Positions 6,690-37,270 of a stretch of 48,051 nucleotides of DNA are shown piece by piece. Position numbers and translations under genes: made by a program. Positions within the stretch are counted from its first letter, which is position 1. Each line of letters starts with the position of its first letter. Under the pieces are notes generated by a model. It worked only from the letters and a program-made list of their open reading frames with translations, searched no databases and was not told where the DNA came from. The stretch comes from Sedimentisphaerales bacterium. Lineage in GTDB: Bacteria > Planctomycetota > Phycisphaerae > Sedimentisphaerales > Anaerobacaceae. Location of the stretch: positions 1-48,051 of the forward strand of contig JAFGDN010000022.1 of assembly GCA_016932095.1 (NCBI GenBank), written 5' to 3'.

Positions 6690-7487
6690 TTAACCGTCCT
6701 TCGAATCCACGACCGCCCCGAAACGCCTCGTGCGTTTGGCATAAGCCAGAATGGCTTTTTCGAGGTCCGCCTTTTCGAAATCGGGCCAGAGCGTCTCGGT
6801 CACGTAAAATTCGCAATAGGAAATCTGCCAGAGGAGAAAATTACTGACTCTCATCTCGTTTGCGGTCCGTATTAAAAGGTCGGGGTCGGGCAGACCGGCG
6901 GTATAAAGATGCGAATCAATACACTTTTCGTCGATATCCTCAAGCGACAACCGGCCGGCCTTGTGCTTTCGGGCGATTTCCCTTGTCGCGTCGATTATTT
7001 CAACCCTGCTGCCGTAGTTAAGCGCCAGCGCAAAGACCATACCGGTATTTTTTTCGGTGGCCTTGGCCGTATCGGTCAGCGCCTTTTTGACGATTTGCGG
7101 CAGGCGTTCCATCCGGCCGAGGTGAACCAGCTTGACGTTATCTTCCATAAGGGTCGGGCGCATCTTGTCCAGATATTCGGCGTAAAGGTGCATCAGGACG
7201 TCAATTTCCTCCTGCGGTCTTTTCCAGTTTTCGATGCTGAAGGAATACAGGGTAAGGACCTCGATTCCGAAATCGACGCAGCACTGGGAGATTTTTTCAG
7301 CGGTTTTGCCGCCCTGCCGGTGGCCTTCATATCGGGGCAGCCCCCTGTTCTGCGCCCATCGGCCGTTGCCGTCCATAATTATAGCGATATGGCGAGGCAT
7401 ATCCCCGGGCTTAATACCAAGCCGGGCGGCAGTTTGATTAAATCTGGTTTCTGCGTTTTTGTTCATTGTTCGTTGTTCATTGTTCAT
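6690..7487 (-). CDS. uppS: Isoprenyl transferase (undecaprenyl diphosphate synthase type)
   Basis: This cis-prenyltransferase elongates farnesyl diphosphate to the C55 carrier lipid used in cell-wall and surface-polymer export. Signatures are the catalytic HIAIIMDGNGRWA, EGHRQGG, LTLYSFSIENWKRP, NYGSR and DLLIRTANEMRVSNFLLWQ. The usual RTGGE is RTANE here. C-terminal WPDF closes the fold. The first ATG at 7487 lies in a small ATGAAC-type repeat with no clear Shine-Dalgarno, so the second ATG at 7466 is an equal candidate. It follows purA by 17 bases and touches cdsA. Confidence 0.93.
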   Translation of the reverse strand: MNNEQRTMNKNAETRFNQTAARLGIKPGDMPRHIAIIMDGNGRWAQNRGLPRYEGHRQGGKTAEKISQCCVDFGIEVLTLYSFSIENWKRPQEEIDVLMHLYAEYLDKMRPTLMEDNVKLVHLGRMERLPQIVKKALTDTAKATEKNTGMVFALALNYGSRVEIIDATREIARKHKAGRLSLEDIDEKCIDSHLYTAGLPDPDLLIRTANEMRVSNFLLWQISYCEFYVTETLWPDFEKADLEKAILAYAKRTRRFGAVVDSKDG

Positions 7488-7504
7488 TGACTACGAACTC
7501 GGAA

Positions 7505-28711: not shown

Positions 28712-29644
28712 CTATATATACTCAACCGTCGCGGGCGGTTTTGGGGTTAAATCGTAAAGGCAGCGATTGACGCCCTTTATCTCCGTAATTCGCCTGCAAA
28801 TACGTTCCAGCTTTTCCCACGGCAGCCGAGTTGCAGTAGCCACGCGCGCGTCGATGCTTTCAATGCAGCGAACGACTATAATCTGGCCGAATTCCCGCTT
28901 GTTGTTTCTGATGCCGGTTGCGTAATCGTTAAGCAGGACGGCCAAATACTGAAATGAGTCGCTATCGGCCAGCTCTTCCTCAACTATTGCCGTTGCAGCC
29001 CGGACGGTTTCGAGACGCTCCTCAGTTACCTCGCCGACGATTCTTGCGGCCAGCGCCGGCCCCGGGAACGGTATTCTCTGCGAAATTTCCTTCGGTATGC
29101 CAAGCAGCTCAGCGACTTTTCGAACATCGTCTTTCCGCAGGGTCTTCAACGGCTCAATTACCTTGTAGCCGTATGATTTCTCGGTGTCGATGCCCAATTG
29201 AGTAAGGATATTGTGCTGACGCTTGATGCCGGCCACTGTTTCCTCGATGTCGGTCAGGATTGTGCCGTGCATCAGAAATTGCGCCCCTGATTCCTTAACA
29301 AGCCGGCTGAAAACCTTCGAATAAAAAGTATCTGTTATTGCCTGCCGTTTTTCTTCAGGGTCGGTCAGCCCCCTGAGCGCCGTGAGAAATTCCTTTCGCG
29401 AATTAACCAGCTCAACGGGTATTCCCATATCTGAGAAGATTTTGACAACTCGCTTCGGCTCACCTTCGCGCATAAGGGCGTTGTCGATAAATATGGTTTT
29501 AAGCTGATTACCGATAGCGCGGTGAGCCAGCACTGTAACCGTCGAGCTGTCAACTCCCCCGCTCAAGGCGTTTATCGCTTTGCCATTTCCTACGACTTTT
29601 TTGATTTCCGCAATCTGCTCCTCAATGAAGCGATTGTAATCCAT
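28712..29644 (-). CDS. guaAb: GMP synthase ATP-pyrophosphatase subunit (stand-alone)
   Basis: The 310-residue protein is the synthetase half of GMP synthase, converting XMP to GMP with ATP and ammonia. It has the PP-loop ALSGGVDSSTV near residue 25, GTILTDI, RIPFPGPALAARI and the C-terminal NRCLYDLTPKPPATVEY. No glutamine amidotransferase domain is fused at the N-terminus. This is the split form best known from archaea, so the GATase partner must be encoded elsewhere. The ATG follows AAAGGAT by 6 bases. tRNA-Cys lies 63 bases upstream on the same strand and may share its transcript. Confidence 0.9.
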   Translation of the reverse strand: MDYNRFIEEQIAEIKKVVGNGKAINALSGGVDSSTVTVLAHRAIGNQLKTIFIDNALMREGEPKRVVKIFSDMGIPVELVNSRKEFLTALRGLTDPEEKRQAITDTFYSKVFSRLVKESGAQFLMHGTILTDIEETVAGIKRQHNILTQLGIDTEKSYGYKVIEPLKTLRKDDVRKVAELLGIPKEISQRIPFPGPALAARIVGEVTEERLETVRAATAIVEEELADSDSFQYLAVLLNDYATGIRNNKREFGQIIVVRCIESIDARVATATRLPWEKLERICRRITEIKGVNRCLYDLTPKPPATVEYI

Positions 29645-29707: not shown

Positions 29708-29782
29708 AGGCGGCGGTGGGAGTCGAACCCACGAAATAACGGTTTTGCAAACCGTCGCCTTAGGCCACTTGGCTACGCCGCC
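29708..29782 (-). tRNA. tRNA-Cys (GCA)
   Basis: The minus strand folds into a cloverleaf with acceptor GGCGGCG pairing with CGCCGCC. The anticodon loop is TTGCAAA on a 5-bp stem, the T-loop is GGTTCGACT and the discriminator is U73. Anticodon GCA reads Cys. The 3' CCA is not encoded. Confidence 0.95.
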
Positions 29783-29984: not shown

Positions 29985-30058
29985 GCGCCCGTAGCTCAAC
30001 TGGACAGAGTGTCGGGCTTCGAACCCGAAGGTTGCAGGTTCGACTCCTGCCGGGCGCA
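29985..30058 (+). tRNA. tRNA-Arg (UCG)
   Basis: Acceptor GCGCCCG pairs with CGGGCGC. The anticodon stem is TCGGG/CCCGA around CTTCGAA (anticodon TCG), the T-loop is GGTTCGACT and the discriminator is A73. CCA is not encoded. No terminator is visible after it. Confidence 0.95.
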
Positions 30059-31175: not shown

Positions 31176-31988
31176 ATGAAGAAGGAAATTTGTTTTTTCG
31201 TGATTATAATGTCTTGCCTGATTGGCATCTCTGCAATTACCACAACCGGGTCAACCACTACAAGCGGAACAACAACTACTGCCATCGCAACGACAACCAG
31301 CATACCACCCGGCGGGGGAAGCACTACATCTATAACAACAACGACTACCACTGCGTCCGCGGCGAAGGTGGAAATTCTCGGCGGCGGTTTCAGCAATGGT
31401 CTGTGGCATCCCGTGCCGCAATTACCCGCCGTCAATCGCGCACTGGTTTTTATCGCTTTTGCCGAACGCTCCGGACCCACGACTTTAAATTCCGTGACGT
31501 ACGGCGGCCGGCCGATGACAAAAATCATCCAGCGCAACGTCGGCACCACATACGCACAAAACTATGTCGCGGCATTTATCCTCAATGACGCAGGCATAGC
31601 GGCGGCAACGGATGACCACTTCGCCGTATCGTGGAGCGGCGTGCCGAGTGAAGTTGAGTACGGACACGTATTTCTTCAGAACGTAAATCAATCGGTTCTT
31701 ACCGGTGCAAAGGCCAGCAGGGCCACGGCGACAGGATTTCCCAATCCGATTACGACTTCCGCCCTTTTTACGTGCAACGGAGATATGGTATTCGCCGCGG
31801 CTGAATGTGGGAACAGTGGAATATACACGATGAATAACGGCTTTAGCAGATGGTTTGCATATCGGCTGACATCGTCATCCGGTGCAGTCGGTATCAAATC
31901 CGCAACTGGCGCAAAAGAGACGCCAAGCGCCACCTTCTCGGGCACTTTGAGCCGTCAGGCGATTATCGGTTTTGTTGTTCGTCACTAA
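31176..31988 (+). CDS. Secreted Thr-rich protein of unknown function
   Basis: The 270-residue protein has a signal peptide (MKKEICFFVIIMSCLIGISA). A low-complexity Thr/Ser/Gly/Pro linker follows (about residues 21-62), like a glycosylated mucin-type spacer. A C-terminal beta-rich domain of about 200 residues ends in IGFVVRH. The domain has hydrophobic alternation (RALVFIAFAERS, LNSVTYGGRPMT) typical of a jelly-roll or carbohydrate-binding fold, but no family is recognised. GAGGT lies 10 bases before the ATG, and a terminator follows within 30 bases, so it is a single-gene unit. Confidence 0.8.
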   Translation: MKKEICFFVIIMSCLIGISAITTTGSTTTSGTTTTAIATTTSIPPGGGSTTSITTTTTTASAAKVEILGGGFSNGLWHPVPQLPAVNRALVFIAFAERSGPTTLNSVTYGGRPMTKIIQRNVGTTYAQNYVAAFILNDAGIAAATDDHFAVSWSGVPSEVEYGHVFLQNVNQSVLTGAKASRATATGFPNPITTSALFTCNGDMVFAAAECGNSGIYTMNNGFSRWFAYRLTSSSGAVGIKSATGAKETPSATFSGTLSRQAIIGFVVRH

Positions 31989-32013: not shown

Positions 32014-32042
32014 GGCCGGGCGGCAAACCATCCGGCTTTTTT
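32014..32042 (+). terminator. Intrinsic terminator after the secreted Thr-rich gene
   Basis: GCCGGGCGG (32015-32023) pairs with CCATCCGGC (32028-32036) with one mismatch around loop CAAA, followed by six T. Confidence 0.85.
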
Positions 32043-32062
32043 CATTATCACAGGTTTTAGCC

Positions 32063-32113
32063 GCTTTTTAACGAAAATTTGCGTTTTTTGCGGAAAATAC
32101 GCGCTTTTTAACG
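32063..32113. repeat. 11-bp direct repeat, 40 bp apart, in an A/T-tract region
   Basis: GCTTTTTAACG occurs at 32063-32073 and 32103-32113, exactly 40 bp apart (about four helical turns). The surrounding sequence is rich in T-runs. It leads into the phased decamer modules. Confidence 0.5.
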
Positions 32114-32173
32114 GTTTTGAGCAGTTTTTGTTCGTTTTTGTTACTTTTCTGACAAGCCGAACTGGAAAACCTT

Positions 32174-32380
32174 ATTTTTACGCTGAAAACGCAGATGACC
32201 ATAGATGGCCAAGGTTTTCGACATGGCTAAGTATGGCCACCTTCATTTTTAAGCTAAAAAACGTTGTATGCAGTAGTATGACATAGTATGCCTAACTATG
32301 ACCAAGTATAACCAACAACGATTTTTACGCTGAAAACGCACTTAGACAAACTTAGACACAGTTAGACAAGGTTAGATGCT
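32174..32380. repeat. Three modules of helically phased 10-bp repeats
   Basis: Each module starts with an A/T spacer: ATTTTTACGCTGAAAACGCA at 32174-32193, identical at 32321-32340, and a diverged form ATTTTTAAGCTAAAAAACG at 32245-32263. Each spacer is followed by short units repeated every 10 bp. Module 1 has ATG(A/G)C cores at 32195, 32205, 32223 and 32233. Module 2 has TATG cores at 32267, 32277, 32287 and 32297 and a TATA at 32307. Module 3 has TTAGAC at 32342, 32352 and 32362 and TTAGAT at 32372. Unit sequence differs between modules while the 10-bp period is kept. No reading frame or promoter explains this. The gap 31989-32495 also holds a terminator and the REP-like hairpin listed separately. 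Confidence 0.8.
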
Positions 32381-32428
32381 TGATACTCGATACTCGTAAA
32401 ATCCTAAAATCGAATCAAATCCTCCGCA

Positions 32429-35460: not shown

Positions 35461-36966
35461 TTAGTACTCTTTTTCTTTCTGCTTGTTTACTTTGGCTCGC
35501 CCAAGTTCCACACCTTCGAGATAAGAAAGGGTGTTCTCGATGTTGCGCTGGCCGGGACTAATGGCCTGGGCCTCCTTCAGGACGCGAATTGCCTCGGCAA
35601 AGTTGCCCTTGAAAATGAATGGCACGCAGGTATCGGCTTTTCTTAGCGCCTGCGCCTCCCGTTCCTTTTGTTCTCGGTCTCTTTGGTTATTCTGCCCTTG
35701 CGCTTCGGCTCGCCCAACTTCCACACCTTCGAGATAAGAGAGGGTGTTCTCGATGTTGAATTGGCCGGGACTTATGGCTTGCGCATCCTTCAAGATACGA
35801 ATCGCCTCGGCATAATTCCCCTTGAAAATGAACGGCACACAGGTGTCGGCCTTTCTTAATGCCCGTTCCTCCCGTTCCTTCTGTTCCCGGCTCTGGCTAC
35901 TGCTTCTCTCCTGCTCCAGAAACATGCCGTAGGCAATGCTGCTGGCGTCGCGGATTTCCGGGTCTTGCGGACAGAGTTGGTGCGCTTCCCTGAGCCACAG
36001 GGCGGGCAGTGCTGCATATTGTGGATAGGCCGCGATTTGCGCCGTGGCCCTGGCTGCCATTTCCCTAGCCGCTCGGCATCGTTCTTCCAGATTCGTTTGT
36101 TCGCGCGTTTTTATCATGTGTTGGGCCAGGTAAAGCCCATCGCGAACCACAGGGTCTTGTGGACGCTCCTTGCACGCCTGCTCGAAATATTTCACCGCTG
36201 TGTAAGGGTCATGCCTTTTGAGACATTCATAACCCTCCTTGTAATTGGTGTTCTTGTACGTCTCAGGGTCAAGTTGGGCCGCGAATACCCGCTCTTTGCC
36301 TCTCACGACGTACGGGTCAACAATAATAGGCCTGTTCGGGTCCAAATGCCGTAAATCAACCAGTGAAGAATCAACCGGCGCAGGCGACGTTGAGTCCTCA
36401 ATCCCCTTGAGTCCGAGGTCGCCTGTTCCCATTTCCCCAATCCCCTTTAGCCCCAGGGTGTTGTTCATGTCGATACACTTAAGCCCGAGTTCATTCTCCG
36501 CAATCCCCTTCAAGCACCTCAATGCTTCCTGTTTTGCATCGTTGAACCGTTTTGCCTCTTCCTGTTCCTTCTTGCGCTGTTCTGCAAGCGCTCTTTGTCT
36601 TTCGGCCTCGGAATTGCGCGAAGCGGCCTGGTTGGAGGAGGGTTGATTGGATGTTGAAGACTGCTGTGATTGCACCTGGCCCGTGCCTCCACAGGTCGGA
36701 CACCGTATCCGTTTGGTGCCGGGCGAGCCGGGGCTAAAGGGATTCCGTTTGGCCGGCCGACCGCCGCACCTCGGGCATCCGTCATACGCACGCAAGCCAT
36801 TTACAACAACATATGTGGTTCCTACACCCGTGCCTCCACAATCAGGACAAGATATAAAGCCGCTGCCCCCGCAAGCTGGGCATAATTCTGCGAAGCAGCA
36901 AGCTTGTTGCCAAGTGATGAAGAGAGCAACCACCAAAGAAAAGAGCGGCAAATACCGAACTCTCAT
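35461..36966 (-). CDS. Exported protein with DnaJ-type zinc fingers and TPR-like repeats
   Basis: The 501-residue protein starts at the ATG at 36966, six bases after a strong AGGAGGG. A signal peptide (YLPLFSLVVALFITWQQACC) is followed by four CxxCGG knuckles at about residues 29-32, 40-43, 64-67 and 89-92. These are the DnaJ central zinc-finger pattern, normally cytoplasmic, here on an exported protein. After a Gln/Ser linker and a Lys/Glu coil come four LKxI repeats (LGLKGI) and TPR-like helices. Two 71-residue C-terminal repeats (ADTCVPFIFKGN, ENTLSYLEGVE) close the protein. No J domain is present. It is the first gene of the cluster; the promoter is not certain. Confidence 0.8.
   Translation of the reverse strand: MRVRYLPLFSLVVALFITWQQACCFAELCPACGGSGFISCPDCGGTGVGTTYVVVNGLRAYDGCPRCGGRPAKRNPFSPGSPGTKRIRCPTCGGTGQVQSQQSSTSNQPSSNQAASRNSEAERQRALAEQRKKEQEEAKRFNDAKQEALRCLKGIAENELGLKCIDMNNTLGLKGIGEMGTGDLGLKGIEDSTSPAPVDSSLVDLRHLDPNRPIIVDPYVVRGKERVFAAQLDPETYKNTNYKEGYECLKRHDPYTAVKYFEQACKERPQDPVVRDGLYLAQHMIKTREQTNLEERCRAAREMAARATAQIAAYPQYAALPALWLREAHQLCPQDPEIRDASSIAYGMFLEQERSSSQSREQKEREERALRKADTCVPFIFKGNYAEAIRILKDAQAISPGQFNIENTLSYLEGVEVGRAEAQGQNNQRDREQKEREAQALRKADTCVPFIFKGNFAEAIRVLKEAQAISPGQRNIENTLSYLEGVELGRAKVNKQKEKEY
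35511..35892. repeat. 213-bp tandem repeat inside the DnaJ-zinc-finger gene
   Basis: The stretch beginning caccttcgag at 35511 recurs at 35724, a 213-bp (71-codon) offset, with high identity to about 35892. It encodes the two C-terminal repeat units of the protein and points to recent duplication. Confidence 0.75.
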
Positions 36967-37270
36967 AGTTATCCCTCCTAATAGTTTCACTATAAAAACC
37001 CCGTCAATTTGTTGTTCGTATAGCATCCCCCTGCTGCATAGTAAATAATCGTCTAAATTGCCTGGGAAGATGATTAAAAAGTAATAAAATAAGAAGGGAA
37101 AATGGTGAGGAAATCCGCCTGCCCACCCACGTCAGATGAAAGGCGGACGAGAAGGTAAGAGGCAAAATTGCAACTCTTCTTCGAACGGGATATAAAGCAG
37201 ACCGCTCGTCCCTTCGATTCCACTCATGTTGGGTTCCGCCTGGTGTGGATTATCCCGACAAATCGGAGGA
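36967..37270. other. Gap between the TPR cluster and polA
   Basis: The 304-base gap has no gene I can support. It contains a 7-bp inverted repeat TCCGCCT/AGGCGGA at 37114-37147 with a 20-base loop. This might stop polA transcripts but has no good T run on the minus strand. A weak TTTACT-17-TATACG pair on the minus strand may start the TPR cluster. Confidence 0.35.

What the first reader, a model, noticed from the sequence alone, without database searches (positions are those of the whole stretch)
32174..32380. Three modules of helically phased 10-bp repeats with changing core sequence
An almost fixed A/T spacer heads each module, and behind it short units recur every 10 bp, one helical turn, with different cores per module (ATGGCC, TATGNC, TTAGAC). 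The register is exact over five units in module 2 and four in module 3. Such helical phasing suggests a binding array for a DNA-coating or looping protein, or an expanding selfish repeat. Similar decamer repeats occur between genes in some planctomycetes, but this modular change of core is unusual.
Basis: partly seen in the sequence, partly recalled or inferred. Interest (0 to 1): 0.7.

Follow-up and report, generated by a model that had tools for sequence, protein, structure and literature searches.

The report
Dispersed helically phased intergenic DNA repeat
This is one copy of a roughly 300-bp, non-coding, modular DNA repeat scattered between genes of an uncultured planctomycete; its building blocks keep to 10-bp steps (about one turn of the double helix), so it looks like a DNA-shape or protein-wrapping element similar in kind to known bacterial interspersed mosaic repeats.

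Summary
The array is real. Within 32174-32380 the sequence matches itself at a shift of exactly 10 bp (z 5.6; none of 2000 shuffles as high), and 20 bp. It is not unique: it is one copy of a genome-wide family. Over 38 modules lag-10 identity is 0.48 (z 21) with nothing at lags 9 or 11. Box-to-box distances fall near 10n+3 bp, and the lead-to-box distance is 51-52 or about 72. Copies lie in intergenic gaps with no preferred gene orientation. Sister species carry the box with other decamers, and present/absent/short alleles at the same sites; scattered examples occur in other genera of the family. Best reading: a BIME/BOX-like interspersed mosaic repeat that behaves as a curved-DNA element, probably wrapped by or bound along one face by a nucleoid protein or gyrase. 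Dispersal and phasing are shown; the protein and function are inferred. A purely selfish repeat with decamer slippage remains a serious rival. RNA-hairpin, terminator and REP/RAYT readings are not supported.

The parts
32041..32160 (+). Lead: phased T-tracts (intrinsically curved DNA predicted); homologous lead present in about 18-20 other places
   Evidence: Lag 10/20-21/40 self-identity; R1 model match 32050-32213, E 3e-28 in own genome; top phased AA/TT window of the 48 kb
32174..32191 (+). AT box 1 (near-palindrome TTTTTAnnnTAAAAA), ATTTTTACGCTGAAAACG
   Evidence: 19 places in own genome with up to 2 mismatches vs 1 in reversed control
32193..32212 (+). Module 1 forward decamers AGATGACCAT AGATGGCCAA
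   Evidence: Sequence; same module type after the lead in other copies
32222..32239 (-). Module 1 inverted arm (reverse-complement decamers); with the forward units forms an imperfect inverted repeat
   Evidence: Inverted repeat 32175-32211/32224-32260; fold z -3.6 (+) and -5.0 (-)
32245..32260 (+). AT box 2, ATTTTTAAGCTAAAAA (71 bp after box 1)
   Evidence: PWM scan
32264..32313 (+). Module 2: five decamers, core TATG, exact 10-bp register
32321..32338 (+). AT box 3, identical to box 1 (76 bp after box 2)
32340..32379 (+). Module 3: four decamers, core TTAGA, exact 10-bp register
   Evidence: (TRF period 10, 3.5 copies)

Best explanation
An interspersed mosaic element: a non-coding, dispersed intergenic repeat made of (i) a ~120-bp lead of helically phased T-tracts, (ii) conserved AT palindromes, and (iii) runs of 10-bp units whose core changes between modules and between species. 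Shown: dispersal, architecture, strict 10-bp unit, 10-bp-step spacing, intergenic location without gene-orientation preference, turnover between sister species, lineage-specific cores. Inferred: the lead is intrinsically curved; the AT palindromes and decamers are contacted along one helical face, or wrapped, by a nucleoid-associated protein or gyrase (the way BIMEs are bound by IHF and gyrase), so that each copy pins a bend or supercoil between genes. New decamers arise by slippage and are kept when spacing stays near whole helical turns; whole elements spread by an unidentified trans-acting copying activity.
For: Dispersal: (about 20 strong R1 matches with E 6e-33 to 2e-8). Lead alignment with 10-bp-step indels. 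Spacing: lead to box 51-52, or 70-73 in four copies (the extra ~20 bp is not decamer sequence); box to box 60-64, 71-76, 82, 92, 101, 114; Rayleigh R 0.68 at period 10, p 5e-5 over all distances, p 0.01 after collapsing to six clusters, best period 10.1. Lead A/T period 10.2-10.3 in 14 copies, absent in upstream flanks. T/A-tract columns 88% conserved against 70% for linkers, p 4e-7. Phased AA/TT sum: the lead is the top 120-bp stretch in the window (tied) and in all 13 other loci tested. 38 modules: lag-10 z 21, lag-20 z 9.6, lags 9/11/21 none. Gene orientation around 16 copies read: 4 convergent, 5 divergent, 7 tandem. Sister-species alleles. Known precedents: BIMEs bound by IHF and gyrase (PMC2817692); gyrase motif with periodic AT/GC arms (PMC6379681); curved DNA pins plectonemes (PMC6301789).
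Against: No protein, binding or expression data. Decamers are exactly 10.0 bp, not 10.5, so five units drift about 85 degrees on relaxed B-DNA. The cluster-level phasing test is only p 0.01 (0.04 if the period is also fitted). Copies share descent, so copy-level statistics are not independent. A/T periodicity is weak inside the modules themselves. A full G000-type lead plus array was not found at high score outside this genome.
Confidence: 0.5

Rival explanations
1. Purely selfish, MITE-like dispersed repeat: elements are copied in trans by a transposase; decamers and boxes multiply by replication slippage or unequal recombination, and the 10-bp step is only the length of the slipping unit.
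For: Dispersal, intergenic placement without orientation preference, presence/absence between sister species; inverted-repeat modules; lineage-specific amplification.
Against: The lead is not a tandem repeat yet is phased at about 10.2 bp with tracts more conserved than linkers; extra ~20 bp between lead and box 1 in four copies is not decamer sequence. No target-site duplication or terminal inverted repeat could be read, and the single Y1 transposase hit is not flanked by AT boxes.
Confidence: 0.3
2. Array of iteron-like sites for one sequence-specific protein (as plasmid centromeres bound by ParR-type ribbon-helix-helix proteins), used in segregation or regulation.
For: Tandem 10-bp units on both orientations around a palindrome; ParR-type proteins are known to bind ~10-bp direct repeats (general knowledge; PMC9426499 located, not read).
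Against: About 20 dispersed copies with different cores within one copy; no partition genes found beside the window array; cores differ between species while the box stays.
Confidence: 0.1
3. Transcribed RNA hairpins or bidirectional terminators between genes.
For: Several modules fold well, better on the minus strand (mean z -2.5 vs -1.5); 5 terminator-like sites near the array vs 1.0 expected.
Against: Several modules with only forward decamers do not fold (z > 0 on the + strand); stem mismatches show no G-U bias for either strand (19 vs 27, p 0.30); copies are not enriched between convergent genes (4 of 16); no Rfam match except two tRNAs.
Confidence: 0.07

Closest known systems
BIME / REP elements (enterobacteria, pseudomonads)
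   Same: Dispersed intergenic mosaic of short palindromes and spacer motifs; units in alternating orientation; lineage-specific; BIMEs are bound by IHF and gyrase (PMC2817692)
   Different: No GTAG-type headed REP, no RAYT next to the repeat found, strict 10-bp units and a long phased T-tract lead
BOX elements of Streptococcus pneumoniae (boxA-boxB(n)-boxC)
   Same: Fixed end module followed by a variable number of inner modules, intergenic, length varies (PMC3049150)
   Different: Inner unit there is a ~45-bp boxB (size from general knowledge); here a 10-bp unit inside ~73-bp modules; no TSD/TIR demonstrated here
Strong gyrase sites / gyrase consensus motif
   Same: Anisotropic DNA with AT/GC phased near the helical repeat over ~130 bp (PMC6379681)
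   Different: Published period 10.75, symmetric arms about a cleavage site; here 10.2 in a one-sided lead; cleavage not tested
ParR-type centromeres (parC iterons)
   Same: Runs of ~10-bp direct repeats
   Different: Single plasmid locus with par genes; here ~20 dispersed chromosomal copies with changing cores

Membership tests
BIME/REP | Dispersed, extragenic, many copies per genome | tested here: met
BIME/REP | 20-40-nt REP palindrome with GTAG-type head | tested here: not met
   The conserved palindrome is TTTTTAnnnTAAAAA with CTCA/TTGCG flanks
BIME/REP | Cognate RAYT gene flanked by the repeats | tested here: not met
   One Y1_Tnp match in the genome (25.8 bits), no AT box within its 2.7-kb locus
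BIME/REP | Binding by IHF or gyrase | not testable with these tools
   Needs ChIP or gel shift
MITE | Terminal inverted repeats and target-site duplication | tested here: inconclusive
   Sister-species alleles differ but intergenic flanks are too divergent for a clean empty site
BOX-like modular repeat | Fixed end module plus variable number of inner modules | tested here: met
   Lead followed by 1-3 modules with a variable number of decamers
Structured RNA family (Rfam) | Match at gathering score | tested here: not met
   Only two tRNAs in the window
ParR/parC centromere | Adjacent par operon | tested here: not met
   Genes around the window array: collagen/glue-like, TPR, HEAT, DNA polymerase A, STAS; genes beside other copies not annotated by family
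Strong gyrase site | Gyrase cleavage/binding | not testable with these tools
   Only AT phasing measured

The most novel reading that the evidence does not exclude
A DNA-shape repeat family in which selection holds helical phase while letting the letters change: a phased curved lead plus 10-bp units spread between genes to position supercoils or a coating protein across a planctomycete chromosome, a sequence-flexible nucleoid-organising code.
Probability: 0.25. Interest if true: 0.7.

Novelty: new variant of a known kind. Interest (0 to 1): 0.45.

Why it matters
If the phasing is under selection, these copies are natural replicates (about 20 in one genome, with 10-bp-step indels) for testing whether intergenic repeats act through DNA shape rather than sequence. 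They would also add a planctomycete counterpart to BIMEs and could explain assembly breaks: several contig ends of this genome lie inside copies (C3, C51, C26, C31, C91).

Tried and rejected
Structured RNA: no Rfam match, no strand-specific wobble signature in the stems. Terminator or promoter role: gene orientations around the copies are as expected at random. REP/RAYT: single weak Y1 transposase, not flanked by boxes. Empty-site and TSD reading: attempted in four orthologous intergenic regions of G001/G002/G003; alleles differ (absent, short, long) but flanks are too diverged for a clean junction. Ortholog of the window site itself: identity to the sister species is too low and no syntenic array site was recovered. 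Viral contigs: three box matches, none with decamers. Random box matches in unrelated genera treated as chance; those I read (L137, L139, L148) carry no decamers. Literature on planctomycete intergenic decamers: nothing found.

Full report
WHAT WAS CHECKED. The finding describes three modules of 10-bp repeats at 32174-32380. The sequence holds them. Three AT boxes lie at 32174, 32245 and 32321; module 2 has five and module 3 four units in exact register. Module 1 has two forward units (32195, 32205) and then a pair at 32223 and 32233 that is out of their register and reads better as an inverted arm. Self-identity at a shift of 10 bp is 0.44 against 0.26 in dinucleotide-preserving shuffles (z 5.6, 0 of 2000), with lag 20 at z 3.0.

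IT STARTS EARLIER. Upstream, 32041-32160 is a stretch of T-tracts phased at 10, 20-21 and 40 bp. Summing AA/TT steps by helical phase, this is the strongest 120-bp stretch in the whole 48 kb (17.7, tied with one other place; mean 4.7, sd 2.6). It belongs to the same element.

IT IS A FAMILY. BLAST in the window's own genome (2.95 Mb, 94 contigs) gives dozens of partial matches; the 18-base box with up to 2 mismatches occurs 19 times against 1 for the reversed control. Aligned copies share lead, box and decamers. A sequence model of lead plus box finds about 20 places with E from 6e-33 to 2e-8 in this genome.

ANATOMY. Lead (~120 bp, phased T-tracts) - short linker - CTCA TTTTTAnGCTAAAAA CG (the AT box, a near-palindrome) - decamers - box - decamers, one to three modules. 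In 38 modules from about 16 loci identity at lag 10 is 0.48 (z 21) and at lag 20 0.38 (z 9.6), with nothing at 9, 11 or 21 (shuffle of single letters). The first module is usually of type AGATGGACAC, the second of type ACTTAGCATT/AGTATGCAT; so the change of core seen in the window is a family pattern. Some modules carry the units in both orientations and form long imperfect inverted repeats (window modules 1 and 2, C16, C70, C31); others carry forward units only.

PHASING. Lead-to-box distance is 51-52 bp in most copies and 70-73 in four, a jump of two turns by sequence that is not decamer repeat. Box-to-box distances are 60-64, 71-76, 82, 92, 101 and 114 bp. A Rayleigh test at period 10 gives R 0.68 over all (p 5e-5); collapsed to six clusters p is 0.01, or 0.04 when the period is fitted (best 10.1). 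The lead's A/T content has a period of 10.2-10.3 bp, absent from the upstream flank and weak within the modules. Tract columns are 88% conserved and linkers 70% (p 4e-7). The lead is the most strongly phased 120-bp stretch in each of 13 other loci. These copies share descent, so p-values over copies are optimistic.

CONTEXT. Of 16 with a gene on each side, 4 are convergent, 5 divergent and 7 tandem (my count), which is what random placement gives; this speaks against a terminator or promoter role. Around the window copy the genes are a collagen/glue-like protein (31176-31988, +) and TPR/HEAT-repeat proteins and DNA polymerase A on the other strand.

RELATIVES. Same-genus genomes carry the box with other decamers, mainly ACTTGCCCCT, often closed by an inverted copy. 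At orthologous intergenic sites (genes about 88-90% identical) one species has a long element, another a short one, a third none. No clean target-site duplication was legible. In 89 genomes of the family, strong lead+box matches occur only in this genome, but CTCATTTTTnnGCTnAAAACG with up to 1 mismatch occurs in 7 genomes outside the genus with 0 in the reversed control; some of those have phased T- or A-tracts beside it by eye (L213, L211); one found separately is significant (L122, period 10.5, 0 of 200 shuffles), most are not. In the rest of the class it is rare (3 genomes). So the box appears old in the family, and the amplified form recent and local.

MECHANISM. Shown: dispersal, modularity, 10-bp unit, stepwise spacing, turnover. 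Inferred: the lead is curved, and boxes plus decamers are contacted along one face or wrapped by a nucleoid protein or gyrase. Precedents are BIMEs, bound by IHF and gyrase (PMC2817692), the 130-bp gyrase motif with phased arms (PMC6379681), and pinning of plectonemes by curved DNA (PMC6301789). Against a strict one-face model, 10.0 bp is not 10.5, and five units drift by about 85 degrees unless the DNA is overwound or wrapped. The main rival is a selfish repeat whose decamers multiply by slippage; it explains the modules but not the phased, non-repetitive lead.

RNA AND REP READINGS. Stems show 19 G-T and 27 A-C mismatches (p 0.30), so neither strand looks like a conserved RNA, although the minus strand folds somewhat better. 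There is no Rfam hit but two tRNAs. The genome has one Y1-type transposase match, not flanked by boxes.

VERDICT. A real, dispersed, helically phased mosaic repeat: a new variant of a known kind of element. Function unproven.

Noticed in passing
window 32382-32396: GATACTC heptamer doublet right after module 3; similar CTCGATACTCG / GTATCTCGTATCTC runs follow other copies (C85, C2).
   Followed up: no
window 35490-35894: Two 213-bp tandem copies (84% alike) inside the TPR-protein gene 35461-37026.
   Followed up: no
window 7459-7489: TTGTTCA heptamer repeated 4.4 times.
   Followed up: no
window 28712-29644 (-): Stand-alone GMP-synthase-like ATPase with GMP_synt_C but no glutaminase domain matched, near a macro-domain gene and a tRNA pair (29708-29782 -, 29985-30058 +).
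   Followed up: no
G000:C3:1-72, C51:1-72, C26:1-80, C31:1-80, C91 end: Contig ends lie inside copies of the element, so the true copy number is probably higher than counted.
   Followed up: partly
L221 (G096:C333:424-444): Another genus has tandem CACCCTCATTTTTGG... boxes with AAGATCGTC units: same plan, different core.
   Followed up: partly
L094 and L088 (G001:C57, C61): Runs of TCTTAGCAGAACGGTTTTCG-like ~20-bp units beside a box, possibly another expanding repeat in the sister species.
   Followed up: no
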